The notes below the pieces were generated by a model that saw nothing but the letters and a program-made list of their open reading frames with translations, had not been told where the DNA came from and ran no database searches. Both the position numbers and the translations under genes were made by a program. A DNA stretch of 64,000 nt from Saccharibacillus sacchari DSM 19268 (GTDB lineage: Bacteria; Bacillota; Bacilli; Paenibacillales; Paenibacillaceae), in assembly GCF_000585395.1 (NCBI RefSeq), contig NZ_KK073875.1, forward strand, positions 509,186-573,185, read 5' to 3'. Within the stretch, counting starts at the first letter, position 1. Every line of letters begins with the position of its first letter. Positions 16,114 through 58,616 of this stretch are shown here, piece after piece.

Positions 16114-16247
16114 GGAAGCGAAAAGACGGAGAGAAAAATTCAGTGAAAAACGCCTTTGAACTTGGAAAACCTCTACTCGAATTTCATTCCGGTTTTCCAA
16201 GTGAGACAGCGTTTTGAACGAATTTATCTCGAAGTCTTTTCGCTTCC
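16114..16247 (-). repeat. Nested-palindrome dispersed repeat, copy A
   Basis: 134 bp. Outer perfect 14-bp inverted repeat GGAAGCGAAAAGAC (16114-16127) / GTCTTTTCGCTTCC (16234-16247). Inner 11-bp hairpin CTTGGAAAACC (16161-16171) / GGTTTTCCAAG (16191-16201). Read on the minus strand it aligns over its whole length with copy D at 58483-58616 (same length, most positions equal), including TTCAAAGGCG just after the inner stem. The distal arm overlaps the 3' end of the DUF423 gene. Confidence 0.85.
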
Positions 16248-16607
16248 CATCGACAACGCAAGCAAAATCCACCCCGCAATAAAAGCGACTCCGCCCAGCG
16301 GCGTAATCGGCCCGAAGATTTTAAGCCCGGTTGTGCTCAGCAAGTACAAACTGCCCGAGAACATGACGATACCGGCAAAAAATAACCAAGCCGCCCAGGT
16401 CAGTCTTCGAGATTCGCCCCATACTCCCATCGCAATAGACGCAATCAACATGGCAAGTGCATGGATAAAATGATACTGAATGCCGGTCTGAAACGTCTTT
16501 AACGCGTCTTCACCGATCTGTTCGCCAAGAATGTGGCTGCCGAAAGCCCCTAATCCAACGCCGATCATGGCGACGATACAAGCAACGATCGCAATTTTCC
16601 GCTGCAT
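16224..16607 (-). CDS. DUF423 family small membrane protein
   Basis: 127 aa from ATG 16607. Four hydrophobic helices; the N-terminal part (IGVGLGAFGSHILGEQIGEDALKTF-type) is the DUF423/YwdK-family signature GAFGAH..L with the following tyrosine-His region (QYHFIHALAML). Function is unknown for the family; inner-membrane location is expected. The last seven residues (GSEKTSR) and stop codon lie inside repeat copy A, so the repeat insertion has defined the present C-terminus. An upstream alternative ATG overlaps by four bases. Monocistronic. Confidence 0.88.
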   Translation of the reverse strand: MQRKIAIVACIVAMIGVGLGAFGSHILGEQIGEDALKTFQTGIQYHFIHALAMLIASIAMGVWGESRRLTWAAWLFFAGIVMFSGSLYLLSTTGLKIFGPITPLGGVAFIAGWILLALSMGSEKTSR

Positions 16608-16928
16608 ACATTCCCTCTTTTCCTTTTTTAACTTGAAACCTGTTTGCAGGCTCTTCGTTTCGCCTTGCAAATCGACTTTCATTATAGGATGTTATGAAGG
16701 CAAAGGCCAGAAAAAGGCGAAAACTTCATTATTTTTCGCGATCCGTTCAGCTTATGGCCGGGTAATACTTATTAATTCCCTACCTGCTTCCGATGTGTAT
16801 TTTAACTGAAACCAGATGATTAGTCGCTGCGTATTACGGGAGACAGTCGGCAATTCAGGGTTGCTTTTTGATGCGGAATATGAAAGAGTAATCACGTAAA
16901 AGCTTCCAAAATAAAGGAGAGTTGAAGC
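16608..16928. promoter_or_regulatory. Divergent intergenic region, probable promoters
   Basis: Contains a perfect minus-strand -10 TATAAT (16681-16686 on the plus strand as ATTATA) for the DUF423 gene with no clear -35, and a small CCTGTTTGCAGG palindrome. No clear plus-strand promoter and no gene seen. Confidence 0.4.
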
Positions 16929-17519
16929 ATGGATAATCGGTTTCCACCATCCGACGGCAAAGATGACCGTCAAAACGGGCCGGATCTTCGCAAAGATCCT
17001 TACCGGAACGAATCTGAACCCAACAACAATTTCGGAGACCCGTATCGCAGCGAACCCGACGGACGCGGTTATGACGACCGGGTTAACCCGCCGTTCAGCC
17101 CTTACGATTCGTATCCGCAAGGCGATCGCCCTCAAGAACGTCTCAAACATTCCGGAGTCGGCATCGCTTCGTTCGTGCTTTCGCTGCTCAGCATCGCCTT
17201 GTACGTGGTCTTTGTCATTTCGGCGTTCAGCGTCGTGTATTCGCTTGGCGAAGTGGGAAGCACGGTAAATTTCGACGTGAACTCAGCTACAGAAGAACAG
17301 CTGATGAGCGTCGGGCTTAGCGCCATCGTCCTCATTTTCAGCGTTCTCGGCGCAGCCGTGTTGAATCTGGTCGGCGCGATTCTGGGCATCGTCGGTATCG
17401 TATCCAAGACGCGCAAAAGAGTCTTTGCCGTGATCGGTACCGTCTTGAACGGCTTGTGCCTGCTCGGCGGAGGCGGCTTTATTATCTTCAGCACAGTGAT
17501 CGGAGCCGGCGGCCTGTAA
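16929..17519 (+). CDS. DUF4190-like membrane protein
   Basis: 196 aa. The first ~75 residues are hydrophilic and rich in Asp, Arg, Asn and Pro (disordered, cytoplasmic by charge). Three hydrophobic helices follow (about residues 79-103, 127-160 and 168-194). The order small-residue-rich helix GVGIASFVLSLLSIALYVV then LNLVGAILGIVGIVSKTRKR resembles the DUF4190-type proteins of Gram-positives, whose function is unknown. SD AAAGGAG precedes the ATG. Monocistronic, ended by a strong hairpin. Confidence 0.75.
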   Translation: MDNRFPPSDGKDDRQNGPDLRKDPYRNESEPNNNFGDPYRSEPDGRGYDDRVNPPFSPYDSYPQGDRPQERLKHSGVGIASFVLSLLSIALYVVFVISAFSVVYSLGEVGSTVNFDVNSATEEQLMSVGLSAIVLIFSVLGAAVLNLVGAILGIVGIVSKTRKRVFAVIGTVLNGLCLLGGGGFIIFSTVIGAGGL

Positions 17520-17561
17520 AAAGTCTCTTTTGCCAACATAAGCGATAGCAGCGCGATTCTC

Positions 17562-17596
17562 AAAAAAGGCCGACGCTTCACCAGCGTCGGCCTTTC
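17562..17596 (+). terminator. Intrinsic terminator
   Basis: AAAGGCCGACGCT / AGCGTCGGCCTTT, 13-bp stem with a 5-nt loop. Confidence 0.9.
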
Positions 17597-17773
17597 GTCT
17601 GCCGATTCGCTTCGGATCATGATATACTGTTAGCTGCGGAGAATGTCTCTACATACGTTGTCTCGCCCGATTTGCAACCCGACATCAATTGCTTGCCGAA
17701 GACAATGTAACAGCTTTGCTTATTTCGCCCGCTTGCTTTTTAAGTGTGCGGGAGCGTCCATGAGGAGATGAAT

Positions 17774-18622
17774 ATGCCCAACATTCGAATTTTTTCTGAC
17801 AGTACCAGCGATCTGCCTGCCGGGCTAATCGAGCAATACGGCATTGGAATCGTACCGCTGTACGTCGTTTTCGAGGATCAAACTTACCGTGATGGCGTAG
17901 ACCTTACCCCATCCCAGCTATTTGATAAAGTCGCCCGTCAGGGCAAGCTACCCAAATCCGCAGCCCCTTCGCCGGCCGATTTCGGTCAAGCGTTTGCTCC
18001 TTATATTGAAAAAGGGGAGCGTATTCTGTATATCAGTCTCTCTTCCGAGCTGTCATCCACGTATCAGAACGCCCGGATTGCCGCCGATGACTTCGATCCG
18101 GGCAGCGTAACGGTCTTTGACTCGCTAAATCTCTCGACGGCAATCGGCATTCAAGTGCTTCAAGCAGCCCGTCTTGCCGAAGCCGGTGCGGAGATTGACG
18201 AGATCGTGCGCAAGCTGGAACGCATGCGTCCCGAGGTGGAGACCGAATTCGCGATCGACACGCTGGAATATCTGCACAAAGGAGGGCGCTGCTCCGGCAT
18301 GCAAAACCTGATCGGAAGCCTGCTCAGCATTCGCCCGATTATCAAGGTCAACGACGGCAAGATGACACCGGCTTACAAAGTTCGCGGGAAGCGGGAAAAA
18401 GCGATCGACAAGATGCTGCAAAACCTGCTGGTCAACAAAGACCGGATCGAAGGACCTGTGGTCGTCGTGAACGCGCACGCCGAGGAAGACGCGATTCAAA
18501 TGCGCGAATTTATTCTTCGGGAAACGAATGTAACGGAAGTGCTGATGCCTTCGGCCGGATGCGTCATTTCGACGCACTGCGGTCCAGGCACAATCGGTCT
18601 GATGTACGCCAAAAAAAGCTAA
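17774..18622 (+). CDS. DegV family fatty-acid-binding protein
   Basis: 282 aa from ATG 17774 (GAGGAG six bases upstream; the ATG two codons earlier abuts the SD). The opening strand [12 protein letters not shown] with the conserved serines, [24 protein letters not shown] and the C-terminal HCGPGTIGL are diagnostic for DegV/FakB. Family members bind a fatty acid and present it to FakA kinase for phosphorylation and use in phospholipid synthesis. No fakA is nearby. Cytoplasmic, monocistronic. Confidence 0.95.
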
Positions 18623-18633
18623 ATCCCTTTATC

Positions 18634-18687
18634 AAAAAAGACCGCCGTTTTCTCCAGCCCAAGGAGAGGAAACGGCGGTCTTTTTTT
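18634..18687. terminator. Bidirectional intrinsic terminator
   Basis: AAAAAAGACCGCCGTTT / AAACGGCGGTCTTTTTT with an additional TCTCC/GGAGA inner stem, between the convergent degV-like and kinase genes. Confidence 0.93.
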
Positions 18688-20596
18688 ATTCTTCGCACAA
18701 CATCGGCAAAGTGAACGAGAAGACCGATCCGGCCCCCTCTTGGCTTTCTGCCCAGATCGTTCCTCCCATCCGCTCGATCCAACGTTTACAGATGGCGAGC
18801 CCCAGACCGGTTCCTTCATAACTGCGAGCCAGCGTCGAAGAATGAATTTGGGAAAACGGCTGGAACAATAGTTCCATTTTGTCTGCCGGAATCCCGATCC
18901 CGCTATCGCGAACTTCGACTTTGAGTACGCAGCGCGCCATCTCTCCGTGACCCGTACGCGGCCGAACCACGCATTCCGCAAACACTTCGATCAGCCCTCG
19001 CGGCGTAAATTTAACGGCATTACCGACAAGGCCTACCATGATCTGCCGGAGTTTCCCTTCGTCCCCAACCAACTCTGAAGGGAATCCGTCGGCAATTTGA
19101 AGCGCCAACTCGACGCCGGACGTCTGTGCCTGGACCGAAAAAGCTTCGACCGATTCTTCGATCAAGCGGCGCGCCCGGAACGGCTTGTTCTCAAAACGCA
19201 ATGCCCCGCTCTCCGCAGCATTAAAATCAAGGACTCGATCGACAACGGCCTGCAGGCCTCGCCCGCTTAGCAGCAGCACTTCCATATAATCCTGCTGTTC
19301 CAAGGTCAATTCGGTTTGCTGCATCAATTCCGCCATGCCGAGCACGCCGCCGAGCGGCGTGCGTAGTTCATGGCTCATCAGGCTCAAGAACTTCGTTTTG
19401 GCAGCAAGTCCGCGTTGCGCTTCGTCTTTTTGCCTAACGATCTCCGCTTCGCTGGTCACATCCTTGAAAACGACGACGGCTCCTGCCGGTTCGCCGTTTT
19501 CGAATAACGGATTCACCCGGTACTCGACCAACAGGCTGCTTCCGTCTTTGCGCCAGAATACTTCACCGCGAACTTCCCGGACAATGCCTTCGCGCATTGA
19601 ACTGTGAATCGGACACTCCTCCACCGGATACGGACTGCCGTCGGCGCGGCTGTGATGAATCAGATCGTGATTATAGATATTTTGGAATTCTTCGATTTCG
19701 TACCCGAGCATCTGCGCCCCTGCCTGATTGATGAATACGGAGCGCCCTTCGCGATTGATCTCATAAATTCCTTCCGATACCGCATTCAGGATTGACGTGT
19801 ATTGATCCGTCAATTCCCGGCTTCGCTGCATCTGCCGCTTCGACTCCGTAATGTCGAGCGCGATCATATACACCCCCAACACTTGTCGATCGACAATGAT
19901 CGGCAGCGTAGTGAGATTCACGTCGATCCGCTGTCCGTCAGTTGCCAGAAGCTGCGCCTCGAAGTTGCCGGAATGTCCGCTTAGGGCGTACTCGAACCGT
20001 TGCTCTAGCAGCATGGACGACTCCGGTGCAAAAAAATGAGCATAAGGTTGTTCGGACAACTCGCGATGCGAATAACCGGTCATCGCTTCCAAATTCGGAT
20101 TGACCGACAAACAACGTCCCTCGGGATCAAAGGACAAAATCCCCGCCGGGTTATATTCAAACAACGAATGGTACAGACGTTCCTGCTCGCGCAATTTGCG
20201 GTTCCGATGTTCGTCCTCCGTGATGTCTTTGGCAATCGCATATACGCCTACCCGAACATCGTCTTGTTCGATGGCTACATACGTAATCGCCAGCATTCGC
20301 TTTTCGCCGTCTCTGCGTATAATTTCAAGCTTGAACTCCAGTCTTTTTTGCGTGTCCATCGCGTTCCAGTAAAGCATACTTCGGCCCGGTTCGCGATTGG
20401 CGGAAAAATCGCGCAGCGTCATGGATTGCATCTCTTCAAAAGTATAACCGGTGATCTGTTCGGTCGCAGGATTCGCATAGACCAGATCTCCCGCCATGTT
20501 CATCACGTAAATGGCGTCGGGATGGTGAAAAAACAGCGGGCGATACACTTCACTTTCCGCAACCGTTTCTCCTAACAAGCCAAATGAATTTTTCAA
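18686..20596 (-). CDS. Multi-PAS hybrid-less sensor histidine kinase (orphan)
   Basis: 636 aa from a TTG at 20596 (AAGGGAG six bases upstream); a GTG at 20617 is an alternative without SD. Three PAS domains: around residues 15-120 ([20 protein letters not shown]), 145-260 ([20 protein letters not shown]) and 270-390 ([20 protein letters not shown]), each with a following PAC-like segment. A HisKA dimerisation helix with [12 protein letters not shown] and a complete HATPase_c (N box NAVKF, G1 DSGIGIP, G2 GTGLGLAI) follow. No membrane helix, so a cytoplasmic sensor. No response regulator gene is adjacent. Confidence 0.94.
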
Positions 20597-20781
20597 GGCG
20601 GACTCCCTTCGTTTCACACATCGTCTCTTGACTCATTTTATCTCAATTTTTCTTTAAAAAACAGGGAGTACCGAACGGGTTTGCCGAATTTATTCCGCTT
20701 CCTTTTTCCTGTTGCGTCAGTCACGCTTGCTTGTTGTTATATAGAGATAGAGATAGAGCCTACATAGAAGGGACGAACGGA

Positions 20782-22332
20782 ATGGGCAATGATGAATTAT
20801 GGGCGACGCATCGCAGCGGTACGATCATGCGCGCGTCGGGCAACCGGCAATACGAACCCAAGCGCCCTCGCGGCAAAAAAAACAAACGCAGCACTCCGCT
20901 GACGACCGGAAAGATCATATGGCGACTGGTTATTTTGCTGGCGGTGTGGCTGCTCGCGGTGTTGTTGTATCAGATGAATAAGCCGCTGCCGGAAGGAATT
21001 TCTTACGAAAGCCCGGTCTATCGCACGAACCAGGTCGATTTCTTATACGATTTGACCTATCCGGCGCAGACTCGCGAATTCACGCAGGACCGGCAAATTT
21101 TTGATCGAACGCTTGAAATGATTCAAGAAGCGGAACAGTTTATCGTGATCGACGTGTTTCTTTTCAACGATTATACGCATGAAGGGCAGCAATACCCGAA
21201 GGTTAGCGCCAAACTGGCCAAAACGCTGATCGAGCGCAAACAGGCCGTGCCGGAGCTCGATATCGTGTTTATTACGGACGAGGTCAATACGAATTACGGC
21301 TCGTCTTCCAACGCGCTGCTGGAAAGCATGAAAAAAGCCGGGATTCGAGTCGTCGTCACAAATACCGATCCGCTGCGCGATTCGACTCCGATCTACTCGG
21401 CCGTTTGGCGCACGTTTATTCAATGGTTCGGTCAGTCCGGCAACGGTCATATTCCGAACCTGATGGCCAGCGACGGGCCGGATATCACGCTTCGTTCTTA
21501 TTTGAAGCTGCTGAACGTCAAAGCCAACCACCGCAAAGCTTTTATTACGGAAAAAAGCGCGATCGTCTCCAGCGGCAATATTCATGATGCGAGCGCCTAT
21601 CATTCCAATGTCGCGCTGGAAGTCAGCGGCCCGATTATCGGCGATCTGCTGAAAGCCGAGCAAGCGGTGTTGGACTTCTCCGGCGGCGGTACGCTGCCCG
21701 TATATGCGGGCAGCACCGAACAAGACGCAAACGCCCCTTACGCGGTACGATATCTGACCGAAGGCAAAGTGCATCAGCATGTACTGGCGGAAATCGACAA
21801 AGCAAGCGAAGGCGATACGGTGTGGATGGGCATGTTTTATCTTGCGGATTACGACGTGATGCAGTCGCTGATCGACGCATCGGATCGGGGCGCGGAAGTT
21901 CGCTTGGTGCTTGATCCCAACGAAAATGCATTCGGCCGGGACAAGATCGGGATTCCGAACCGCCCAGTCGCTGCCGAATTGCATGAAGAATCGCCGGAAG
22001 ACATTCAGATTCGTTGGTACAACACGACCAAGGAACAATACCATACCAAAATGCTGTTTATCGATCGGACCGAAGGCCAAAGCAGCATCCTGGCCGGTTC
22101 GACCAATTTCACTCCGCGCAACCTCAAAGATTATAACCTGGAAAATGAATTGTTCGTGGAAGCACCGACCGACAGCGAATTGACCGGCGACGTGCGCGGC
22201 TACTTCGAACGGATCTGGAACAATGACGGCGCCGAATATACGCTGGATCTGGACGAACATTTGGAAGCGACAACCTGGATCAAAGATATTTTGTACCGGA
22301 TACAGATGAGACTCGGATTTACGACGTTTTAA
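20782..22332 (+). CDS. Phospholipase D-like membrane protein with one altered HKD motif
   Basis: 516 aa from ATG 20782 (AGAAGGGA upstream). A basic N-terminal tail of ~45 residues is followed by one membrane helix (IIWRLVILLAVWLLAVLLYQ) and two PLD domains. Motif 2 is canonical (HTKMLFID, then GSTNFT). Motif 1 reads HRKAFITE followed by SSGNIHD, with Glu where the HxK(x)4D signature has Asp. PLDc_2 proteins include cardiolipin synthases and other phosphodiesterases; the single-helix topology differs from ClsA. Substrate unknown. Confidence 0.85.
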   Translation: MGNDELWATHRSGTIMRASGNRQYEPKRPRGKKNKRSTPLTTGKIIWRLVILLAVWLLAVLLYQMNKPLPEGISYESPVYRTNQVDFLYDLTYPAQTREFTQDRQIFDRTLEMIQEAEQFIVIDVFLFNDYTHEGQQYPKVSAKLAKTLIERKQAVPELDIVFITDEVNTNYGSSSNALLESMKKAGIRVVVTNTDPLRDSTPIYSAVWRTFIQWFGQSGNGHIPNLMASDGPDITLRSYLKLLNVKANHRKAFITEKSAIVSSGNIHDASAYHSNVALEVSGPIIGDLLKAEQAVLDFSGGGTLPVYAGSTEQDANAPYAVRYLTEGKVHQHVLAEIDKASEGDTVWMGMFYLADYDVMQSLIDASDRGAEVRLVLDPNENAFGRDKIGIPNRPVAAELHEESPEDIQIRWYNTTKEQYHTKMLFIDRTEGQSSILAGSTNFTPRNLKDYNLENELFVEAPTDSELTGDVRGYFERIWNNDGAEYTLDLDEHLEATTWIKDILYRIQMRLGFTTF

Positions 22333-22358
22333 AAAAGCAGGTTGTCTAAGGAAATATC

Positions 22359-22401
22359 AAAAATGCAGTTCGCTCCTGTGAAGGAACGAACTGCATTTTT
22401 T
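22359..22401. terminator. Bidirectional intrinsic terminator
   Basis: AAAATGCAGTTCG / CGAACTGCATTTT with an extra TCC/GGA, between convergent PLD and esterase genes. Confidence 0.9.
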
Positions 22402-22441
22402 GTCATTCCCCGTAAAATCCAAGTTTAAATACGCGGCTTCT

Positions 22442-23281: not shown

Positions 23282-23412
23282 GAACATTCTCTCCGTTTCT
23301 CTACGCAAAATTTTTCAACGCTTCATGCAATCTATTATGTTCATCATAGCATATCTGATTGGCGATCCTAAAACCCTACTCTCATCGCAAGCTCTGCCAT
23401 CGTATCCGCATG

Positions 23413-23451
23413 AAAAAAGGTTCCCTCCCAAGATCATTCGGAAGAGAACCT
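23413..23451 (-). terminator. Terminator of the EamA transporter gene
   Basis: On the minus strand AGGTTCTCTTCC pairs imperfectly with GGGAGGGAACCT and is followed by six T. Confidence 0.8.
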
Positions 23452-23483
23452 GAATATTCGACTGTGCCGAATGCCTGCTGCGC

Positions 23484-24491
23484 TTAAGCCGCTTCTTGCG
23501 CCAATCGTCCCGGACCGATCTCTTGCGTCTGTTGACGGGAGATAATGAACAGTACCGACCAGATCAAGATAAAGCCGATCACCTGCGCCGGCGTGACTAC
23601 CTCGCCGCCGTACAACCAGTTCACGAGCACGCCGACCATAGGGAAGCTCAATTCGGCCAATGTCGCCACTGAAGCTTTAGTCGTTTTCAGTCCTTTGTAA
23701 TAAGCCAGAAGGCTAAGCAGACCTGGCAGCAACGCTTGCAGAAGCAAGTTCACGCCAACCAATGTAAGTGCGATTCCGCCTGCCGGCAGCGCCCAAGCCG
23801 CACCTTCGCTGGCTGTAATCGCGAGCAGCAGCGGCAAAGCCAGAATGAAGCGCAGCGAAGTCACGGTCTCGTATTTCAGCTTGCCTACCATATAGCGTCC
23901 CATAACCGTCGATCCGCCCCACAGTGCCGCAGCACCCAAAGCGAGCAAGCTGCCCAGTTGCATAAACTCGCCCGCGTGACCGAACGGAACCGTAAAGCCG
24001 AACGTCAGCAAGTACGTACCGCCCAGCGCAACGAGGAACAGCGGACCGAATTGACGCGGCAGCGATTCTTTCAACATGAAGTGCGCCAAAACAATCGCGA
24101 ACAGCGGTTGAAGCTTTTGCAGCAAAAGTACTGTATTGAATGCTCCGCCCGCATGCTGCAGAGCCAGCGTGAACATCAAGGTCGCCAGAGCCGAACCGCC
24201 CCAGGAAATGAACAGCAACGCACCGATTTGACGCCATCCCAAACCTTTCAGTTCCGTCCGGTTTTTCCAAAGAATCGGCGCCGCGACAAGTCCGATAATG
24301 ACATGTTCCAGCAAAACGATCTGCGAAGAGGTCATCGATTCCAACAGCAAAATCCGGAACAGCGGATCGATGCCCCACATGGCCGCGCCGAGTACGATCA
24401 ACCAAAATCCGCTTCCTGCTTTGGAAAAGAAGGAGCTTCCTTTGCCTCCTGTGCTTGCTTGAGTAAAGTCGTTGCGATTGGCTGTTTTCAT
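23484..24491 (-). CDS. EamA/DMT family transporter, probable riboflavin importer
   Basis: 335 aa, ten predicted membrane helices in two EamA repeats (first ~30-160, second ~175-320). Helix 1 begins GFWLIVLGAAMWGIDPLFRI, the typical DMT start. ATG with SD GAGGAG. The gene lies directly behind an FMN riboswitch and its terminator, and is the only gene they can control. RibN riboflavin transporters are EamA-family proteins known to be preceded by FMN riboswitches in other bacteria, so riboflavin or a flavin precursor is the likely substrate. Family from sequence; substrate inferred from the riboswitch. Confidence 0.92.
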   Translation of the reverse strand: MKTANRNDFTQASTGGKGSSFFSKAGSGFWLIVLGAAMWGIDPLFRILLLESMTSSQIVLLEHVIIGLVAAPILWKNRTELKGLGWRQIGALLFISWGGSALATLMFTLALQHAGGAFNTVLLLQKLQPLFAIVLAHFMLKESLPRQFGPLFLVALGGTYLLTFGFTVPFGHAGEFMQLGSLLALGAAALWGGSTVMGRYMVGKLKYETVTSLRFILALPLLLAITASEGAAWALPAGGIALTLVGVNLLLQALLPGLLSLLAYYKGLKTTKASVATLAELSFPMVGVLVNWLYGGEVVTPAQVIGFILIWSVLFIISRQQTQEIGPGRLAQEAA

Positions 24492-24532
24492 TTCCCTAGT
24501 CTCCTCATCTGAATAAGGGGGATCATACGCGC

Positions 24533-24577: not shown

Positions 24578-24681
24578 ACGTTAATCGAAGGGTCGAGCGG
24601 TTCAACAAACACGAAGCGAGTATCCGTTGGCAGGTTCCTCAAAAAAACCTACAGTCGGCTCGCACCGGCATGTCTGCGCTT

Positions 24682-24830
24682 GATCTTCTCCCATCCGGAC
24701 TGTACCGTCGGCTCTGGAATCGCACCAGATCAGTCCCGATCGTTCATGACGAACGATGCGAGAGTCGCGGGCTAGATTTGCGTCGCAAACCATTACCGCC
24801 GGTCGGGAATTTCACCCTACCCCGAAGATC
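24682..24830 (-). ncRNA. FMN riboswitch (RFN element)
   Basis: On the minus strand the order GATCTTCGGGG, AGGGTGAAATTCCCGACC, GGCGGT, CCCGCGA, GGTGCGATTCCAGAGCC, GACGGTACAGTCCGGATGGGAGAAGATC reproduces the conserved RFN blocks. The closing P1 stem is GATCTTC (24824-24830) with GAAGATC (24682-24688). Bound FMN should favour the terminator at 24533-24577. The AT-rich stretch 24840-25068 holds no gene and only weak -10-like sequences (TTATAA, TAAAAT). Confidence 0.96.
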
Positions 24831-25068
24831 CTTTATTCATTTATTTTTTATAATCTTATTTTAAAACAAATCCAGACGATATGCATGTGAAAATTGTCAC
24901 GATATTCGTACATTTCCCGATATTCGCAAAAATGATCGAGAATGATGTCGTCTTTCGCAAACTTTCATCTGCGTTCAGTCTTTCAAGTCTGGTTTCATCA
25001 TAAACCATGTTACACACTTTTACAAGCTACTGAATAAAATAAAGTTAGTTTCCGGGTTGCGTATTCCT

Positions 25069-25701: not shown

Positions 25702-25850
25702 TGGGAAGACCGGGGGCGCTGCGGGGAGAATTCGTTTCGGTCGCTGTCTCAATCGGGAAGCTGGATGGAATTTAACAAGGAGGCTTCCCGATTTCAAAGG
25801 CGAGCGCTTCGCTCCTACACGAACTCTCCCCTCCGCTAAGGGTCTTCCCA
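25702..25850 (+). repeat. Nested-palindrome dispersed repeat, copy B
   Basis: 149 bp. Outer arms TGGGAAGACC (25702-25711) / GGTCTTCCCA (25841-25850). Middle arms GGGGAGA (25723-25729) / TCTCCCC (25825-25831). Inner hairpin ATCGGGAAGC (25752-25761) / GCTTCCCGAT (25783-25792). An extra GAGCG/CGCTC mini-hairpin lies at 25802-25814. Shares AATTCGTT, GCTGTCTCA, GGAATTTA and TTCAAAGGCG in order with copy D. Confidence 0.85.
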
Positions 25851-25871: not shown

Positions 25872-25922
25872 GATCTGTTTTTTTAATTAAAAAACAGACG
25901 CCGTCTCTTTTCAGACGGCGCC
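25872..25922. terminator. Two hairpins between repeat copies B and C
   Basis: A CTGTTTTTTTAATTAAAAAACAG palindrome adjoins GACGCCGTCT / AGACGGCG(CC). On either strand a GC stem abuts an A/T run, so it can terminate transcription, most plausibly of the beta-mannosidase gene. Confidence 0.55.
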
Positions 25923-25944: not shown

Positions 25945-26102
25945 TTCCCGGCGAAGCGGGTGCGGAGGGAGAAATTTAGTGTAGGAGCGATAGCGTTCGC
26001 CTTTGACTTTGGGAAGCTTCCTTATAAATTTCAATTAGGCTTCCCAAAGTCAACACGCGACCGGAACGAATTTCTCCCGCAGCACCTCCCCCAGCTTCCC
26101 AC
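25945..26102 (-). repeat. Nested-palindrome dispersed repeat, copy C
   Basis: About 158 bp, inverted relative to copy B. Inner 13-bp perfect hairpin GACTTTGGGAAGC (26005-26017) / GCTTCCCAAAGTC (26039-26051). Middle arms GGGAGAAATT (25967-25976) / AATTTCTCCC (26069-26078). Minus-strand reading gives TCAAAGGCGAACG and TAGGAGCGA-like blocks also in copy B. Ends 10 nt from the beta-mannosidase stop. Confidence 0.82.
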
Positions 26103-49717: not shown

Positions 49718-49771
49718 CTTGTCCTTCGTTCCCCTCTACGTTCTTTTTTATTATTGTAGCACCCAAGCAGC

Positions 49772-49796: not shown

Positions 49797-49835
49797 CACT
49801 CCGCCAAGCTTATGACCTTTCGCTATTGAGACAAA

Positions 49836-51518: not shown

Positions 51519-51722
51519 GTCTATTTCCTCCTCGCGTTCGGGCTATGCCGAATAACGTAATTTGGTTGGGGCGTTTCGTGAAATCTCGGGTAGATCCGGC
51601 GTCGCCTTGTTTGTTCGTCGTTTGCTTCTGTAGTTATTTTCGCCCAAGAACCTTAATTGAACATTAAAAGAGGTATAAAGATAGATAAGAAAAAGTAAAT
51701 TATTTTGAATTCGCTTTCTTTC

Positions 51723-51788
51723 AAGCTTGGAGGAGGTTTTTGGGGAAGCTGGGGGCGCTTCCGCTAAGCAAAAAACTTCTCCATGCTT
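51723..51788. repeat. Nested inverted repeat F, likely deletion derivative of the A-D family
   Basis: Outer AAGCTTGGAGGAGGTTTTT (51723-51741) pairs imperfectly with AAAAACTTCTCCATGCTT (51771-51788). Inside, GGGGAAGCTGGGGGCGCT runs straight into TCCGCTAAG (51742-51768), matching the left and right ends of copy B with the middle missing. The remaining 51519-51722 shows no gene. Confidence 0.55.
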
Positions 51789-51818
51789 AAAAGCTCCTTC
51801 CGGGGGAAGGAGCTAAGA
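51789..51818 (-). terminator. lia operon/methyltransferase terminator
   Basis: AGCTCCTTCC / GGAAGGAGCT 10-bp perfect stem, GGG loop, then TTTTAAG on the minus strand, immediately after the methyltransferase stop. Confidence 0.85.
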
Positions 51819-51827
51819 GTTTAAGTT

Positions 51828-52526
51828 CTATTGAACGGTATCAGAAGGAAGCCGAAAAGTCAGGCAGTACATCAAGCCGTCGCAAATCTCACGGGCGTTG
51901 ACTTCGAGCATACCGGGAGGAACCAGTTCGATCGGAATCCGGATATCGGTTCGGTTCTTAAATCTTTTGCCTACGAACGGAATCTTCTCGTACGTGCCGG
52001 ACGCGAGCCTTTCCGTTTCGTCGACGATCACGATCTTCGTTCCCGGTTTGGCTACTCGGATCATTTCCTTTACAGCCCCGGCACCGTCGTTGAAAAAATT
52101 GATGCCGCCGACATGATAGACGGTATCGAAACTGTTGTCCCCGAACGGAAGGGCTTCCGCGGAAGCGTGATACAGCGAAGCGGTCCGATTCCACTTTCGC
52201 AGATGTTTGCGGCACGCCTGAAGCATGCCCAATGACAGATCCAAGCCGTGCAAATCAATATTTTCCGGCAAATACGGAAAATTGTCTCCGGTTCCGCATG
52301 ACACTTCAAGCACGCGGCCTCCGTCCGGAATTTCGAGTTCGCTCAAAAACTGATTCCGGTAAGCGGCTTCGCCACCGAATTTCAACCGAAAATAGATTTT
52401 GTTCGACAGATTGTAAAAAGGAGCGATGCGGTCGTACATTTTGCGATACTTGTCGTTGTCTCCGATCGTCTGCTCTGCTCCCGGAAACCGTTGAATATCT
52501 ACTGTAGCCTGCATCGAATTTTTCAT
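51828..52526 (-). CDS. Class I SAM-dependent methyltransferase in the lia operon
   Basis: 232 aa from ATG 52526, whose first base is the last base of the liaR stop (TGATG), so it is translationally coupled. SAM motif I is VLEVSCGTGDNFPYL; HGLDLSLGML, FDTVYHVGGINFF and KIVIVDETE follow, a UbiE/PMT-like pattern. N-terminal KMYDRIAPFYNLSNKIYF resembles quinone and phospholipid methyltransferases. No membrane helix. Fourth gene after liaF-liaS-liaR, so probably induced by envelope stress. Substrate unknown; lipid or quinone is a guess. Confidence 0.88.
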   Translation of the reverse strand: MKNSMQATVDIQRFPGAEQTIGDNDKYRKMYDRIAPFYNLSNKIYFRLKFGGEAAYRNQFLSELEIPDGGRVLEVSCGTGDNFPYLPENIDLHGLDLSLGMLQACRKHLRKWNRTASLYHASAEALPFGDNSFDTVYHVGGINFFNDGAGAVKEMIRVAKPGTKIVIVDETERLASGTYEKIPFVGKRFKNRTDIRIPIELVPPGMLEVNAREICDGLMYCLTFRLPSDTVQ

Positions 52527-53182
52527 CAACGGATCATGCCTTGCCGATGCGCATAGATCGCAAGCTGCGTACGGTCTTCCAGTTCGCACTTCATCAGCAG
52601 GTTGCTGACGTGCGTTTTGACGGTTTTGATGCTGATATGTAATTCTTCGCCGATCTCTTTGTTGCCCATGCCTTCCGCGATGAGCAGCAGCACTTCTTTT
52701 TCGCGCTCGGTCAGCGGGGAGGAATCGGCTTCGACGGTGCGTTGACGAATGCCCCGGGTCAAGGCTTGGGAAACGTCTCCTGTCATGACCGGCATGCCGC
52801 GGAACGCGCCTTTTAACGCATAGATCAGTTCTTCGGCCGTAACGGTCTTGAGCACATAGCTCACCGCTCCGGCTTCGATCGCTTCCATAACCAGTTTGTC
52901 TTCCAGGAAACTGGTCAACATGACGACGCGCACAGCAGGAAATTCGGAGACGACGACGCGTGTTGCTTCGGTTCCGTTCATTTCCGGCATCATCATATCC
53001 ATTAAGATCAGATCCGGCATATCGCCGCCTTCGGCGGAAATGGCGCGCAAGCGTTCGATGACCTCCAAGCCGTTACTCGCTTCTCCGATCACGTCAAACC
53101 CGGGCTCCAGCATCAAGTACGTCTTCAGGCCCATCCTCACCATGTCGTGATCGTCCGCCAGCAGGATCTTGATCTTGTCCAT
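52526..53182 (-). CDS. liaR: Response regulator LiaR
   Basis: 218 aa, NarL/FixJ family. Receiver with LLADDHDMVRMGL, phospho-Asp in LILMDMMMPEMNG and K in AVSYVLKTV; LuxR-type HTH with LTEREKEVLLLIAEGMGNKE and ISIKTVKTHVSNLL. Start supported by GGAAGAG. It begins 89 nt before the liaS stop. LiaR activates cell-envelope stress genes in related Bacillota. Confidence 0.95.
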   Translation of the reverse strand: MDKIKILLADDHDMVRMGLKTYLMLEPGFDVIGEASNGLEVIERLRAISAEGGDMPDLILMDMMMPEMNGTEATRVVVSEFPAVRVVMLTSFLEDKLVMEAIEAGAVSYVLKTVTAEELIYALKGAFRGMPVMTGDVSQALTRGIRQRTVEADSSPLTEREKEVLLLIAEGMGNKEIGEELHISIKTVKTHVSNLLMKCELEDRTQLAIYAHRQGMIR

Positions 53183-54218
53183 GCTCTTCCACTGCCTTTC
53201 CTTCTGTGAATTTTGGAATATGTACGCGAATCGTGGTTCCGGCTCCGGGTCTCGAAATAATCTCTGCCCGGCCGCCCAACTTCTCCGCCCGTTCTCGCAT
53301 GGTCATCAAGCCGTACGAACCTTGTTTTTGCGCCGCGCTTCCGGAAAACCCTTTGCCGTCGTCGCTGATCGACAGCAGCACTTGGCGCTCGTTCTCGCGC
53401 AGCGACAAGCTGACGATGCCGGCATGCGCGTGTTTGACGATGTTGGCCATCGCTTCCTGCACGATCAGGAACAACTGCTGCTCGATCGCTTCGGACAACC
53501 CTTCGCACAACTCGACATCCTTCACGCCCTTCAACCCGTTTTGGATGCAATAATCCGGGAACCAACGATCCAGCGCGGCGGGCAGGTCGATCCCTTCCAG
53601 TTCGACGGGACGCAGCTGCGCGATCAACGCCCTCATCTGCTTCTGGGCCAGATTCGACATCTGAATCAACTGCTGCATCACCTGCACCGAGGCATCGGGA
53701 TTCAATTCCAAGACTTTCGGCAGCGAAGCGGCAGACATATGGATGGCAAAAAGCTGTTGGCTGACCGAATCGTGCAGATCGCGCGCCATCCGGCGGCGTT
53801 CTTCGCGCACGGCGCTTTCCACCAACTGCTCCTTGCCGATCGCTTCGCTCTCCCCGAGCTTTTGCAGCAGCTTGGTCTTGGTCTCGATCGAATCCATCAT
53901 GACGTTAAATTCACTGTACACGCGGGCAAAAGACTGATCGTCCGTATCGCCGAGACGCAGCGCCAGATTGCCTTGCGACACCTGGAGCATCGTATAATGA
54001 AGCACGTCGATCCGACGTTGAATCCGCTGTCCCGCAACGTATCCCGTAACGACGGCGACCAATACGGCGGCAAGCAGATAAAATACCCAGATTCGCGGAG
54101 GAAAAACCCGTACGAATCCGTACAGGCTGAACCAATACAGCAAAGCGGCGAGAATCCCGCCGCTTAGCAGAAAGTAAAACATCAATTCCCATTTCGTGTT
54201 TTTCAGTAAGTTTCCCAT
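53094..54218 (-). CDS. liaS: Sensor histidine kinase LiaS
   Basis: 374 aa. Two N-terminal membrane helices with almost no extracellular loop (intramembrane-sensing type), a HAMP-like linker, HisKA_3 with REERRRMARDLHDSVSQQLF, and HATPase_c with ISDDGKGF and GSYGLMTMRERAE. Follows liaF by 12 nt. The last ~30 residues read out of frame through the start of liaR, an 89-nt overlap. LiaS receives cues through LiaF and phosphorylates LiaR. Confidence 0.94.
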   Translation of the reverse strand: MGNLLKNTKWELMFYFLLSGGILAALLYWFSLYGFVRVFPPRIWVFYLLAAVLVAVVTGYVAGQRIQRRIDVLHYTMLQVSQGNLALRLGDTDDQSFARVYSEFNVMMDSIETKTKLLQKLGESEAIGKEQLVESAVREERRRMARDLHDSVSQQLFAIHMSAASLPKVLELNPDASVQVMQQLIQMSNLAQKQMRALIAQLRPVELEGIDLPAALDRWFPDYCIQNGLKGVKDVELCEGLSEAIEQQLFLIVQEAMANIVKHAHAGIVSLSLRENERQVLLSISDDGKGFSGSAAQKQGSYGLMTMRERAEKLGGRAEIISRPGAGTTIRVHIPKFTEGKAVEEHGQDQDPAGGRSRHGEDGPEDVLDAGARV

Positions 54219-54230
54219 AACCGCCCGCCT

Positions 54231-55529
54231 TTACCCTACGATATTGACGTTGACGTCCGAGATGAACGAGCTGACGTTAATCTTGATCCGTTTCGCGCAA
54301 TCGTCATAGTTTCGCGTTTCGTCGGCGCCGCCGACCATGCCGCTTCGCGTGTTGCCCAATACGTTGTGGTTACCGAGGAAGGAGCTGGTGTTTACTTTGA
54401 CTCCGACTTCCGGGTCGTTCGGCATGTAGATCACGACGTCTCCGATAAAGCTCGATATATTGATTTTCGTTGTTCCGTAAGGAATCTGTGCCTTCGTCAG
54501 ATCGATGACCGTGTCTCCGATAAAATGGGAAACGTTCAACGGTTTGAGGCGGAAGTAATCTCTGCCGATATAATAGTCGCCGATAAAGCTCGACTCGTTA
54601 ACGGTTTTGTCTTTTTTTTCTTTATCCGCCTTTTGGCGTGCTTTACGCATCTGTTCGCGATCGTAACCGCTATAGGCGTGCCTACTATCTTCGTCGCAAC
54701 TATCGTAAAACCTTCCGTTGTCCGAAAAATCTTCCGGAAAAGGATCTTTTTCCAGCGAAACGGTGCCGCGCTTTTTCTTGTCTTGTTCGTGATTCATCGA
54801 CTTTTTAAAATCTTTCATGGCACTGTCGACTTCGCTTTTCACTTCGTCCGCAATACGGGAAAAGTCGATTTTGCGCACCTGATCGGCTGTCTGTTTACCG
54901 AATTCGCGAGCCATGTCTCCGATTTTCTGGAATTCCGACGCATTGTCCGGACGGGGTTCGCGATCTTCCCGATCGAATTCGCGGCGAGCTTCGGGTTCCC
55001 AGTCATAACGTTTACCGTCATGTTTGCGTGCATGCTCGGGTTCGCTCTTCGGTTCGTCTTTATCCAGGTTGACGAACATTCGATCCAAAGGCGATTCCAA
55101 CGGCTCGATCGGAGCTGGCGGAATCGGGGGTTGAGGGTTCGCTTTACTGCCCATAGACGAAAAATCGTCGGGGCTTTCCGGACGGGCGGACGGATATTCC
55201 GGAACCCGCTTCGGTTTAACCAGCGTGTAAATGCCGATCGCAATAAGTCCGGCAGGAATCAGGAATTTGAAAAACTCGCCTGTGCCGAGATCGGTAATGC
55301 CGAGATTGCGAGCTTGGAAATATCCGCCGATCGCGATCAAAATCAAATGGCCGACGATGCTTGAACTGTGCTTTTTGGCACCCAGCAGCTGCGAAATGCC
55401 GGTCACGATCAGAATGGTCGGCCAGAACGTCCGAATCAAATCTCCGATGCCGTAACTGATATAACCGAGTTGATAGGCCAGAAAAATGCCGCCGATCGCG
55501 ATCAGCCATATGGCTCCGCTTTTCTTCAT
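54231..55529 (-). CDS. liaF: LiaF-like inhibitor protein, extended form
   Basis: 432 aa from ATG 55529 (AAGGAGGAG upstream); the frame is open further upstream without SD. Four short membrane helices (KKSGAIWLIAIGGIFLAYQL, WPTILIVTGISQLL and two more), then a ~180-residue charged linker rich in Asp, Glu and Arg not present in the ~240-aa B. subtilis LiaF, then the C-terminal DUF2154 beta-helix: SSFIGDYYIG, SHFIGDTVID, SSFIGDVVIY and SSFISDVNVN repeats. LiaF restrains LiaS until envelope stress. First gene of the operon. Confidence 0.93.
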   Translation of the reverse strand: MKKSGAIWLIAIGGIFLAYQLGYISYGIGDLIRTFWPTILIVTGISQLLGAKKHSSSIVGHLILIAIGGYFQARNLGITDLGTGEFFKFLIPAGLIAIGIYTLVKPKRVPEYPSARPESPDDFSSMGSKANPQPPIPPAPIEPLESPLDRMFVNLDKDEPKSEPEHARKHDGKRYDWEPEARREFDREDREPRPDNASEFQKIGDMAREFGKQTADQVRKIDFSRIADEVKSEVDSAMKDFKKSMNHEQDKKKRGTVSLEKDPFPEDFSDNGRFYDSCDEDSRHAYSGYDREQMRKARQKADKEKKDKTVNESSFIGDYYIGRDYFRLKPLNVSHFIGDTVIDLTKAQIPYGTTKINISSFIGDVVIYMPNDPEVGVKVNTSSFLGNHNVLGNTRSGMVGGADETRNYDDCAKRIKINVSSFISDVNVNIVG

Positions 55530-55654
55530 CACGTTCTCCTCCTTGTATGTGGGACCGGAAACTTCGATCGACGCTTCCGGAAACTCTCTTCTTGTTACAT
55601 TCAGTCTACCGTAAGCCCGATCGAGGCAAAAGCGGCCCAAGAATGAAAACCGCC

Positions 55655-55670
55655 TCGGTCTCAAGACCGA
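55655..55670. promoter_or_regulatory. Perfect palindrome upstream of liaF
   Basis: TCGGTCT-CA-AGACCGA, 7-bp arms, 125 bp before the liaF start and 8 bp after the stop of the 66-aa gene. Could be a LiaR operator or a short terminator; neither strand has a good T-tract. Confidence 0.45.
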
Positions 55671-55678
55671 TATGGGCG

Positions 55679-55879
55679 TTATAATCGAATCCGGATCGAG
55701 TCGATGGCTAATTCTTCATTCCAGCCTTGCTTCAAGTCTTCTTGGCTTAAAGGCTTCCAATCTTGACCGCGCCGCGCCATCATCCCCGTCGCAAATCTTT
55801 GACGCTCTTTTTGTAACCCTTGTCCGAACAGCCGACCGTAAGCTTCTTTCAGCAATTTCTTCATCTTATGTTTTCTCAT
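55679..55879 (-). CDS. Small basic protein, unknown
   Basis: 66 aa from ATG 55879, chosen because GAGGAGG lies eight bases upstream; the longer frame lacks any SD. Highly basic N-terminal half (MRKHKMKKLLKEAYGRLFGQ, then KERQRFATGMMARRG), no membrane segment, no recognised family. It sits 150 nt upstream of liaF on the same strand with a palindrome between, so it might be the first gene of the lia transcript or separate. Purely descriptive. Confidence 0.6.
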   Translation of the reverse strand: MRKHKMKKLLKEAYGRLFGQGLQKERQRFATGMMARRGQDWKPLSQEDLKQGWNEELAIDSIRIRL

Positions 55880-56050
55880 ATCCCGCGCCTCCTCTTCGTT
55901 TTTTCCAGTATGCGCGAAAAAGCGATTTCTCTTAAGCGGCGCGGGAATGATTTGCTTTTCCGGCCCGAGAGCGAACTTTCGTCCCGCCTCCGGCCCTGCC
56001 GTTCTCCGCCTTGCGACCGAGCTGCCGCAGACCCGGAGCAAAAAGACGTA

Positions 56051-56081
56051 AAAAAGCCGCTCCTATTAAAGAAGCGGCTTG
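56051..56081 (-). terminator. thrS terminator
   Basis: AAGCCGCT / AGCGGCTT 8-bp stem with a run of six T after it on the minus strand, 18 nt past the stop. Confidence 0.85.
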
Positions 56082-56098
56082 ATTTTGAATATTCCACT

Positions 56099-58036
56099 TT
56101 AGATCTTGCGGGTTTGAATCTCTTCTTTTAACAGGGCAATCACTTCGTCCAACGGCTTCGCGCCGAGGTCGCCTTCGCCGCGCTTACGCACGGATACGCC
56201 GCCGGCTTCTTTCTCGTTTTCGCCGACTACGAACATGTACGGCGCTTTTTCCAGCTGCGCTTCGCGGATCTTGTAGCCCAACTTCTCGTTGCGCACGTCC
56301 GTTTCCACGCGAATTCCGGCTTTTCTCAAGCGATCCGCCACTTGCTCGGCGTATTCGCTGTAGTTGCCCGATACCGGAATGATTTTGGCTTGCATCGGCG
56401 ACAGCCAAAGCGGCAGGTTGCCGGCGAAGTTCTCCAGCAAGAACGCGGTAAAACGCTCCATCGTGCTGATGATGCCGCGGTGGATCACGACCGGACGATG
56501 CTTTTGACCGTCATCGCCGATGTATTCCAATTCGAAACGCTCAGGCAGCAGGAAGTCGAGTTGCGCGGTCGACAATGTTTCTTCCTTGCCAAGTGCCGTC
56601 TTGATCTGCACGTCGAGCTTTGGTCCGTAGAATGCCGCTTCGCCCTCTGCTTCGTAGAATGGCAGTTCCAGTTCTTCGACCACTTCGCGCAGCATGCGTT
56701 GGGACATTTCCCACATCTCGTCGTTTTGGAAGTACTTTTCGGTATCTTGCGGATCGCGGTACGACAGACGGAAACGATAGCTGTCGATGCCGAAGTCTTG
56801 GTATACTTTGGCAATCAGCTTCACGACGCGGCCGAATTCTTCCTTGATCTGATCGGGACGGCAGAAGATATGCGCATCGTTCAGCGTCATCGCGCGCACG
56901 CGGTGGAAACCGGTCAGCGCGCCGGACATTTCGTAACGGTGCATCAAGCCGAGTTCCGCGATACGGATCGGCAGTTCGCGGTAGCTGTGCATGTCGCTCT
57001 TATAGACCATCATATGGTGAGGACAGTTCATCGGACGCAACACGAGCGATTCGTTGTCCAGCTCCATAGGAGGGAACATGTCTTCTTGATAGTGCTCCCA
57101 GTGTCCGGAAGTTTTATACAGCTCGACGTTGCCCATGACTGGCGTGTATACGTGTTGGTAGCCGAGACTTTCTTCCAGGTCCACGATGTAACGCTCCAGC
57201 GTACGGCGCAGTTTAGCTCCGTTCGGCAGCCAGATCGGCAGACCTTGGCCGACCAGATTGTTAAACGTGAACATTTTCAAGTCTTTGCCCAGTTTACGGT
57301 GATCGCGCTTCTTTGCTTCTTCGAGGAAATGCAAATGCTCGTCCAGCTCGGCTTTCTTGAAGAACGCCGTGCCGTAAATCCGTTGCAGCATTTTGTTCTT
57401 GCTATCGCCGCGCCAGTAAGCGCCCGCTACGCTCAGCAGTTTGAAAATTTTCAATTTGCCCGTCGAAGGTACGTGCGGTCCGCGGCACAGGTCAAAGAAT
57501 TCGCCTTGATCATAGATCGTGATCGCGGAATCTTCCGGCAGCGCTTCGATCAGTTCGATTTTGTAAGGATCGCCCAGCTCGCCGAAAATTTTCAGCGCTT
57601 CTTCGCGGCTCACTTCACGACGCGTGATCGGCAGGTTTTCACCCACGATGCGTTCCATTTCTTTCTCGATCTTTTGCAGATCTTCCGGGTTGAGGCCGTG
57701 TTCGAGATCCATATCATAGTAGAAACCTTCTTCGATCACGGGACCGATGCCCAGCTTTACTTCATTCGTACCGAACAGACGACGTACCGCTTGCGCAGTC
57801 AAGTGAGCGGTACTGTGACGCACCACTTCCAAACCTTCCGGCGATCCCGGCATCACGATTTCGATCTGTGCGCCGTTTTCGAGCGGGGTGCTCAGATCGA
57901 CGACGATTCCGTTTTGTTTGCCTGCCAGTGCATTTTTGCGCAAGCTGCTGCTGATCGATGCCGCAACGTCCTCGATGGTGCTGCCTGCTTCGTATTCCCG
58001 AACGGAGCCGTCCGGCAGGCTGATAGAGATAGCCAT
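56099..58036 (-). CDS. thrS: Threonyl-tRNA synthetase
   Basis: 645 aa from ATG 58036 (AAAGGAGG upstream). TGS domain at the N-terminus ([20 protein letters not shown]), editing domain with [11 protein letters not shown] and the tRNA_SAD motif, then the class II core: motif 2 region [20 protein letters not shown], zinc ligands NCPHHM (Cys) and motif 3 [17 protein letters not shown], and a C-terminal anticodon domain. The open frame continues ~160 codons upstream through the T-box leader; that part is not translated. Confidence 0.98.
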
Positions 58037-58085
58037 AATGATAATTCCTCCTTTGATTTTGAAAAAAGCAAATACGGAATCGGCA

Positions 58086-58411
58086 CGCAAAAAACGCCCG
58101 TCCCGCGAAGGGACGAGCGTTATACCCGTGGTTCCACCCTGATTCGGCCCGGTTCCGCCATGCGTTCGATCTCGTCGATGTTGGCGGGACAAAAAGCCCT
58201 CATTGAGCACGTCAATAACGGAAGTGCGGTTCCGGCGTGATCTACTGTTCAGCTCTACGATTCGCGCAAGCGGAGATCCTAAGCGGAAGTTCGAAAACGC
58301 AGCTCGAAAGGGGTAAATGCGGGCCGGTCCGGAGGAAATTGCAGCCGAAGTTTCCTCTCTCTGGAGCGGTGCCGTGTGCCAGCATTCATGTCTTTGTCGT
58401 TGCTTTTGCTG
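58086..58411 (-). ncRNA. Threonine T-box leader of thrS
   Basis: The T-box AGGGTGGAACCACGGGT (minus strand, 58124-58140) is followed by an intrinsic terminator ACGCTCGTCCC / GGGACGGGCGT plus six T (58089-58121). Upstream lies a ~270-nt leader with a long Stem I (GGAGGAAA .. TTTCCTCC) and an ACC codon (58312-58314) where the specifier is expected. Uncharged tRNA-Thr should stabilise the antiterminator. Confidence 0.95.
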
Positions 58412-58417
58412 CTGTTC

Positions 58418-58446
58418 ATTATAAGCGGCAACGTTGAAAGCGTCAA
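58418..58446 (-). promoter_or_regulatory. thrS leader promoter
   Basis: Minus strand -35 TTGACG (58441-58446), 17-bp spacer, perfect -10 TATAAT (58418-58423); TSS near 58411 at the leader start. Confidence 0.88.
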
Positions 58447-58482
58447 GACCGGTGGGTGCGGCAGCAAAGTTACTCGGGTGCG

Positions 58483-58616
58483 GGAAGCGAGAAGACTCCG
58501 ACAAAAATTCGTTCAATTCGCTGTCTCACTTGGAAAACTGGATTGGAATTTAAAATGTGGTTTTCCAAGTTCAAAGGCGTCTTTCACTGAATTTTTCTCT
58601 CCGTCTTCTCGCTTCC
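58483..58616 (+). repeat. Nested-palindrome dispersed repeat, copy D
   Basis: 134 bp. Outer 14-bp perfect arms GGAAGCGAGAAGAC (58483-58496) / GTCTTCTCGCTTCC (58603-58616). Inner CTTGGAAAAC (58529-58538) / GTTTTCCAAG (58560-58569). Compared with copy A both outer arms carry one complementary substitution (A to G on the left, T to C on the right). Lies between thrS promoter and the end of the HAD gene. Confidence 0.85.

What the first reader, a model, noticed from the sequence alone, without database searches (positions are those of the whole stretch)
16114..58616. Unrecognised family of dispersed nested-palindrome repeats with compensatory changes
Copies at 16114-16247, 25702-25850, 25945-26102 and 58483-58616 share AATTCGTT, TTCAAAGGCG and a hairpin-in-hairpin plan. 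Inner stems differ (CTTGGAAAACC, ATCGGGAAGC, GACTTTGGGAAGC) yet each pairs perfectly. Copies A and D, both 134 bp, differ in the outer arms by complementary substitutions. This looks like selection for structure, as in bcr/MITE-type elements or a structured RNA, but I know no such family.
Basis: partly seen in the sequence, partly recalled or inferred. Interest (0 to 1): 0.85.

Follow-up and report, generated by a model that had tools for sequence, protein, structure and literature searches.

The report
Terminator-seeking folded repeats in Paenibacillus relatives
The four palindromes belong to a large, apparently undescribed family of folded DNA repeats that a structure model finds in most sampled genomes of the order that holds Paenibacillus; they sit in gaps between genes, and in some subfamilies they are flanked by two copies of a transcription-terminator-like hairpin, as if they had inserted into it and doubled it.

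Summary
All four copies are recovered by a model trained partly on them. The genome is a Saccharibacillus (inferred from relatives): 23 copies in an unbiased 440 kb, so about 300 in all. Covariation passes both controls.

A cross-genus model matches 257 of 296 genomes drawn from the order, and 38 of 398 drawn from the class, all 38 of that order. No Rfam family matches the copies.

Copies lie between genes (0 of 165 inside called genes); adjacent pairs always face each other with the same end (31 of 31). In one Saccharibacillus subfamily 28 of 74 copies, and in a distant relative 8 of 8 with both ends found, are flanked on both sides by copies of one locus-specific hairpin, mostly terminator-like. 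Two empty sites hold that hairpin once.

I read it as a mobile, MITE-like superfamily built on a conserved folded core, whose insertion can duplicate a whole terminator hairpin. What moves it, and what the core does, are not shown. Searches found no REP transposase and no reverse transcriptase in this genome.

The parts
16087..16275 (+). Copy A, subfamily 1; conserved 134-bp core at 16114-16247, with outer arms of about 27-28 bp
   Evidence: CM R1 148.4 bits, a training sequence; extent of the arms from the 30-copy alignment and terminator distances; overlaps the last 24 bp of a called DUF423 gene on the minus strand
16042..16071 (.). Terminator-like hairpin on the left side of copy A (GACCGAGTGAACG...CGTTCACTCGGTC, T-run to the right)
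   Evidence: read from the sequence; same place in the sister species
25706..25848 (-). Copy B, with the small side hairpin module (GTAGGAGCGAAGCGCTCGCC)
   Evidence: CM R1 108.6 bits; CM R2 116.9 bits; a training sequence of both
25900..25919 (-). Terminator-like hairpin between B and C, followed by a T-run for leftward transcription of the glycoside hydrolase gene
   Evidence: read from the sequence
25950..26095 (+). Copy C, between the stop codon of a GH2-type glycosidase gene (17 bp away) and the hairpin at 25900-25919
   Evidence: CM R1 104.4 bits; R2 119.2 bits; a training sequence of both; gene context
58455..58643 (-). Copy D, subfamily 1; core 58483-58616; between a HAD-hydrolase gene (stop at 58713) and thrS
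   Evidence: CM R1 150.8 bits, a training sequence; R2 83.1 bits, not a training sequence; context

Best explanation
These are copies of a MITE-like, non-autonomous mobile superfamily whose defining part is a conserved folded core: an outer stem, three asymmetric internal loops of fixed sequence (GCGGAG/CGCAGC; CAGTG or CTGGAG/GAACG or CGGAAG; CGCCTTTG/CAACA or GAGACA then GCG), an optional side hairpin, and a long inner stem-loop. Shown: the conserved structure; the order-wide spread; the intergenic placement with one end facing the gene; and, in two subfamilies, flanking by two copies of a locus-specific hairpin that is single in the two matching empty sites found. Inferred: the element inserts at terminator hairpins by a process that duplicates the whole hairpin, which would keep termination working on both sides; the folded core in single-stranded form is what the mobility step or the host recognises; the machinery acts in trans and is unknown. 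Once in place the core lies in 3' untranslated or intercistronic RNA, where it may also act as an RNA structure.
For: Doubled hairpin: 28 of 74 subfamily-1 copies above the 99% swapped-flank null, 19 above 99.9%, repeats mostly 27-28 bp left and 28-31 bp right of the core; 26 of these 28 have an A-rich left or T-rich right border, a simple count without a null. In relative G051, 8 of 8 copies with both ends found are abutted within 0-3 bp by a repeated hairpin, every score (19-50) above every swapped pair (at most 18), 3 of the 8 repeats identical. Empty sites with one hairpin: G000 L142 against G014 L201, and G000 L129 against G015 L043, where only the loop region is doubled and partly degenerate. 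Terminators at a near-fixed distance on both sides of subfamily 1. Orientation: 31 of 31 adjacent pairs '-+' in G000, 7 of 7 in G014. 3 of 161 copies in divergent gaps although 127 of 601 gaps over 150 bp are divergent. Covariation. Order-wide spread.
Against: Most copies do not show the doubling: 46 of 74 subfamily-1 copies do not pass the 99% null, and of 106 other copies 5 pass it and 0 pass 99.9%. Other empty sites printed (L132; G002 and G010 sites) concern copies without doubled hairpins and do not bear on it. 18 of 20 mapped G000 copies have a copy at the orthologous place in the sister species, and 18 of 23 the other way round; the four absences I looked at, of seven, keep part of an arm and look like deletions: little current movement here. 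No RAYT or reverse transcriptase found in this genome. Only 6 of 272 arm matches in about 27% of the genome lie outside counted copies, so no sign of a split, autonomous parent; I did not inspect their neighbours. A second G051 subfamily with the same core has different ends and by eye about 5-bp repeats, so the core may be cargo rather than the mobility signal.
Confidence: 0.55

Rival explanations
1. A functional RNA module (cargo) of 3' untranslated and intercistronic regions. The conserved core acts in the transcript, for example as a decay barrier, a processing site or a protein-binding structure, and is spread by several unrelated MITE-type vehicles or by ectopic recombination, and kept by selection at the locus.
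For: The interior is conserved across genera while ends and apparent target repeats differ. By eye, loops stay fixed while stems change compensatorily at orthologous sites (L198/L134, L207/L156). Copies lie just past stop codons (right side a stop in 105 of 161, median 26 bp; 25 of 34, median 31 bp in G014). Five fetched loci that I checked (L228, L250, L251, L254, L268) lie right after the same sugar-ABC-type permease C-terminus (not a survey, the other fetched loci were not checked).
Against: No excess sequence conservation over alignable intergenic DNA. In 56 of 161 cases the right side faces a gene start, not a stop, so the neighbouring gene does not transcribe the core in one fixed way. 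Copy number seen by R1 differs greatly between sister clades, though R2 shows that the poorer clade has copies too.
Confidence: 0.3
2. A DNA-level palindrome family (cruciform or protein-binding site, BIME-like). Arm-to-arm and copy-to-copy gene conversion keeps the arms complementary, so the covariation needs no RNA.
For: 7 of 15 orthologous pairs examined between G000 and G015 differ in core length by more than 10 bp, with inner modules exchanged where I read them. In a strand-neutral recount G.T to A.C is balanced in the inner stem (28:25 in G000, 4:4 in G014) and overall weak (35:25 distinct, p=0.25; 9:3, p=0.15), and 33:32 in the cross-genus alignment.
Against: The conserved mismatched loops are not corrected to pairs. 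The outer stem shows G.T over A.C 16:1 in G000 and 5:0 in G014; the inner stem of the cross-genus set 13:3. The CM-aligned counts are 51:21 (p=0.0005) and 15:6 (p=0.08), although CM alignment can favour G.T.
Confidence: 0.1
3. A REP/REPIN family moved by a RAYT transposase.
For: Many intergenic palindromes, and a GTAG next to the small side hairpin in copies B and C.
Against: PF01797 not found in this genome; of 16 Saccharibacillus genomes only G006 has it, although the search rings in E. coli. REPs are 20-40 bp (abstract of PMC3733652 in the listing); these are about 190-205 bp.
Confidence: 0.03

Closest known systems
bcr1-bcr18 repeats of the Bacillus cereus group
   Same: Interspersed intergenic repeats, some MITE-like, some with conserved secondary structure, 40-51% of the copies found in transcripts in two strains (passages of PMC3446304).
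   Different: A different group of bacteria. Here an interior core is shared across an order under different ends, and terminator-like hairpins are doubled. bcr sequences were not compared directly.
ERIC, BOX, RUP and SPRITE repeats
   Same: Small MITE-like repeats in intergenic regions, modular in the case of BOX (passages of PMC10969869 and PMC3049150).
   Different: SPRITE itself resembles a terminator; here the element sits beside or inside another terminator. In the passages read I saw no doubled terminator hairpin. Sequences were not compared.
Group IIC introns
   Same: Insert after intrinsic terminators (title of Robart et al. 2007 in the reference list of PMC8919778, passages; details recalled).
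   Different: Ribozymes of several hundred bases with a reverse transcriptase (recalled). No reverse transcriptase was found in G000, and the elements are about 190 bp.
REP/REPIN with RAYT
   Same: High-copy intergenic palindromes.
   Different: No RAYT found in this genome, and a much longer, multi-loop element.

Membership tests
MITE (non-autonomous DDE element) | short, no coding capacity, many copies, terminal inverted repeats | tested here: met
   134-bp core, about 190-205 bp in full, imperfect inverted ends TGTCGAGAAA...TTTCTCGACA; at least 150 model matches. Coding capacity was not tested by a search; the length leaves little room
MITE (non-autonomous DDE element) | target site duplication of fixed length | tested here: inconclusive
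   hairpin-long repeats of variable length: 12-25 bp in G051 alpha (8 of 8), 14-39 bp in 28 of 74 subfamily-1 copies; about 5 bp by eye in some G051 beta copies
MITE (non-autonomous DDE element) | a related autonomous element with a transposase | tested here: inconclusive
   2 L and 4 R arm matches out of 272 lay outside counted copies in about 27% of the genome, neighbours not inspected; the whole-genome pattern list was cut
REP/REPIN | RAYT (Y1) transposase in the genome | tested here: not met
   PF01797: 0 in G000; of 16 genus genomes only G006 positive
Group II intron or other reverse-transcriptase element | reverse transcriptase available | tested here: not met
   PF00078: 0 in G000, 4 of 16 genus genomes; 5 matches in G051, 0 in G014, G016, G045, G033, G058
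A family in Rfam 15 | match to a covariance model | tested here: not met
   window at gathering cut-off: FMN riboswitch only; stretches with copies at E up to 10 or 5: weak matches far below cut-off, and an FMN riboswitch beside one copy
Structured RNA | covariation beyond shuffles and slid controls | tested here: met
   0 of 500 shuffles on every measure
Structured RNA | transcription and RNA-level function | not testable with these tools
   no RNA-seq at hand

The most novel reading that the evidence does not exclude
An unrecognised, order-wide class of mobile structured elements that finds intrinsic terminators by their hairpin shape and inserts so that the entire hairpin, whatever its sequence and length, becomes the target duplication. 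The insertion therefore leaves termination intact on both sides, and the folded core is carried as an RNA module into hundreds of 3' untranslated regions.
Probability: 0.4. Interest if true: 0.9.

Novelty: new variant of a known kind. Interest (0 to 1): 0.8.

Why it matters
A repeat family with some hundreds of copies in this genome, matched in 36 of 48 sampled genera of the order and confirmed in named Paenibacillus records, would affect annotation of transcript ends and non-coding DNA in many genomes. A target duplication equal to a whole hairpin would point to an integration chemistry that reads DNA or RNA shape. Compared species already give empty and filled sites, so the question is directly testable.

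Tried and rejected
RAYT partner and reverse transcriptase: not found in G000; G051 has five reverse-transcriptase matches, one lying next to a beta copy, left open. Autonomous parent by orphan arms: 6 of 272 arm matches outside counted copies in about 27% of the genome, neighbours not inspected; at least one of the six is copy D itself in an overlapping tile. The whole-genome arm list (104 forward, 108 reverse, control 1 and 0) was cut in the output. Replication-strand bias: none seen (51/45 and 47/39, taking the record's midpoint as terminus). Extra sequence conservation of the core: not seen. Strand preference by G.T versus A.C: positive with CM alignments, mixed in strand-neutral counts, so I do not rely on it. 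Direct repeats around non-subfamily-1 copies: 5 of 106 above the 99% null. Phage records: no match for one Paenibacillus-type core. Papers: the searches listed nothing whose title or abstract start, as shown, names this family in Saccharibacillus or Paenibacillus; that covers only the held open-licence library. I read passages of five papers and saw the others as listings.

Full report
Checking the observation. A covariance model (R1) built from 41 copies (A2: 32 from this genome, among them all four window copies, and 9 from relatives) recovers them at 148.4, 108.6, 104.4 and 150.8 bits. In an unbiased 440 kb of this genome (G000, 6.08 Mb, one contig) 23 copies pass E 0.1 on their best strand, which extrapolates to about 300. 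All 150 scored candidates of the whole genome match (capped). Arm matches of subfamily 1 alone number 104 forward and 108 reverse, against 1 and 0 for the backward control.

Covariation. On 149 distinct rows from G000 (A3), 21 of 29 pairs have changes on both sides, 357 cells against 87.7 in shuffles and 12-62 when slid (the alignment was fitted to the model, and one row is a copy read on its other strand). On 33 sequences from several genera (A6), 219 cells against 71.0 shuffled and 27-64 slid (the structure was predicted on this alignment). By eye, orthologous old copies in G000 and G014 keep the loops and change stems compensatorily (L134/L198, L156/L207), and a copy shared with G002 has largely different paired arms. 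Between G000 and G015, in 15 orthologous pairs, folded base pairs that changed on both sides were kept as Watson-Crick in 26 and broken in 8; those changed on one side were kept in 26 and broken in 45.

Which organism. An exact pattern scan of named genomes returned 20 stretches, all Saccharibacillus endophyticus; the tool may leave out the window's own genome. G015 C11 has the length of one of its contigs. G002 has the chromosome length (5,619,468 bp) given for Saccharibacillus sp. ATSA2 in the abstract of PMC6743023 as listed, the strain that another listed abstract calls S. brassicae; that identity is inferred from length. The window is another Saccharibacillus. NCBI places the genus in Caryophanales, Paenibacillaceae; the order used by the genome tool is GTDB's, called Paenibacillales from recall.

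Anatomy. Subfamily 1 (copies A and D) is about 190 bp: a 134-bp core plus arms of 27-28 bp ending in TGTCGAGAAA...TTTCTCGACA. The core carries three asymmetric internal loops of conserved sequence, an inner stem-loop, and optional side hairpins: a short one (AGC-GNNA-GCG) or a longer one (...ATGCTTCCGAAG...), the latter seen by eye in Saccharibacillus, G051 and Paenibacillus cellulosilyticus. 7 of 15 orthologous pairs in two sister species differ in core length by more than 10 bp, with different modules while flanks agree where I read them.

Placement. Of 165 G000 copies in 1.62 Mb of tiles (60 of 79 tiles chosen because they hold copies), 0 lie inside called genes; of 161 with both neighbours, 3 are in divergent gaps against 127 of 601 gaps over 150 bp; the right side of the core faces the nearer gene on the whole (stop at median 26 bp, n=105; start at median 142 bp, n=56; left side 206 and 380 bp); 31 of 31 adjacent pairs are '-+', left sides facing. 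G014 repeats this: 34 copies, 0 in genes, 1 divergent, 7 of 7 pairs '-+'. In 600 kb of Paenibacillus cellulosilyticus, 8 copies, 0 in genes; one of the 8 (L281) has its left side nearer a gene than its right. Genes were called by my own script, not by a standard annotator.

Terminator hairpins. On the left of subfamily 1, 29 of 74 copies have a leftward terminator-like hairpin, mostly 26-27 bp from the core; on the right 16 of 74 have a rightward one, mostly 27-30 bp. The flanking hairpins of one locus resemble each other: 28 of 74 above the 99% swapped-flank null, 19 above 99.9%, against 5 and 0 of 106 other copies (2 of 182 copies were dropped for short or masked flanks). 26 of the 28 have an A-rich left or T-rich right border. 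In G051, placed by the tool in another family of the order, 8 of 8 alpha copies with both ends found are abutted by repeated hairpins, three of them identical over 18-25 bp. Four more G051 loci look alpha-type by their core and were not counted because an end was not found: L234 looks doubled by eye, L244 has lost its left side, L233 and L243 lack the ends. Two empty sites hold one hairpin; in the first the doubled part is the loop region only and is degenerate. The absences inside the 440 kb that I looked at (four of seven) keep part of an arm and look like deletions.

Spread. R1 finds matches in all 16 genus genomes, from 2 to at least 57 (57 is the scoring cap). By ThrS identity the genus falls into two clades; R1 counts are high in one and 2-8 in the other, and 200 kb of G002, 100 kb of G010 and 100 kb of G005 held 3, 1 and 0. 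R2, however, matches 7-10 scored candidates in genomes of the poorer clade too, so that contrast is partly the bias of R1. R2, built from 33 cross-genus sequences, matches 38 of 398 genomes drawn from the class at E 1e-5, all 38 from the order; of the 360 without a match 20 are listed, none of the order, and 340 are not listed. Drawn from the order, 257 of 296 genomes and 36 of 48 genera match. E-values of these models are rough, and only 7 or 10 candidates per genome were scored. Named Paenibacillus replicons confirm it. Tandem arrays of period about 225-245 bp occur in Paenibacillus-type genomes.

Interpretation. Shown: structure, order-wide spread, intergenic placement and orientation, doubled hairpins in two subfamilies. 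Inferred: that the doubling is an insertion product, that the core is read as a folded single strand, and that the machinery acts in trans. Because the interior is shared while ends and apparent target repeats differ between subfamilies, I keep the RNA-cargo reading as a serious rival.

Noticed in passing
window 24679-24833 (-): An FMN riboswitch (RF00050, 115.8 bits) lies directly upstream of an EamA-type transporter gene (23484-24491 -), which may therefore be a flavin-related transporter.
   Followed up: no
window 16224-16247: The called DUF423 gene on the minus strand ends inside copy A, so the repeat seems to supply its last codons and stop.
   Followed up: no
L250 (G131) and L251 (G210): Tandem arrays of the element (five in L250, unit about 225 bp) directly after a carbohydrate-ABC-type permease gene end; in L250 they are followed by what looks like a lipoprotein gene.
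   Followed up: partly
G051 copies L216, L217, L229, L230, L237, L239: The same core inside an element with other ends (GAGCGTGTTCAAAAAG...) and, by eye in some copies, about 5-bp target repeats, as if two integration chemistries carry one core.
   Followed up: partly
L232 (G051 C6:98922-99069): A beta-type copy lies just beside a reverse-transcriptase match (C6:99213-99713).
   Followed up: no
L269-L276: Eight viral-contig stretches carry the core pattern exactly; not read, so whether they are prophage edges is unknown.
   Followed up: no
L186 (G015 C11:381614-382162): A reverse-transcriptase-like open frame of 522 codons in G015 (S. endophyticus), with no reverse transcriptase found in this genome; its type was not determined.
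   Followed up: no
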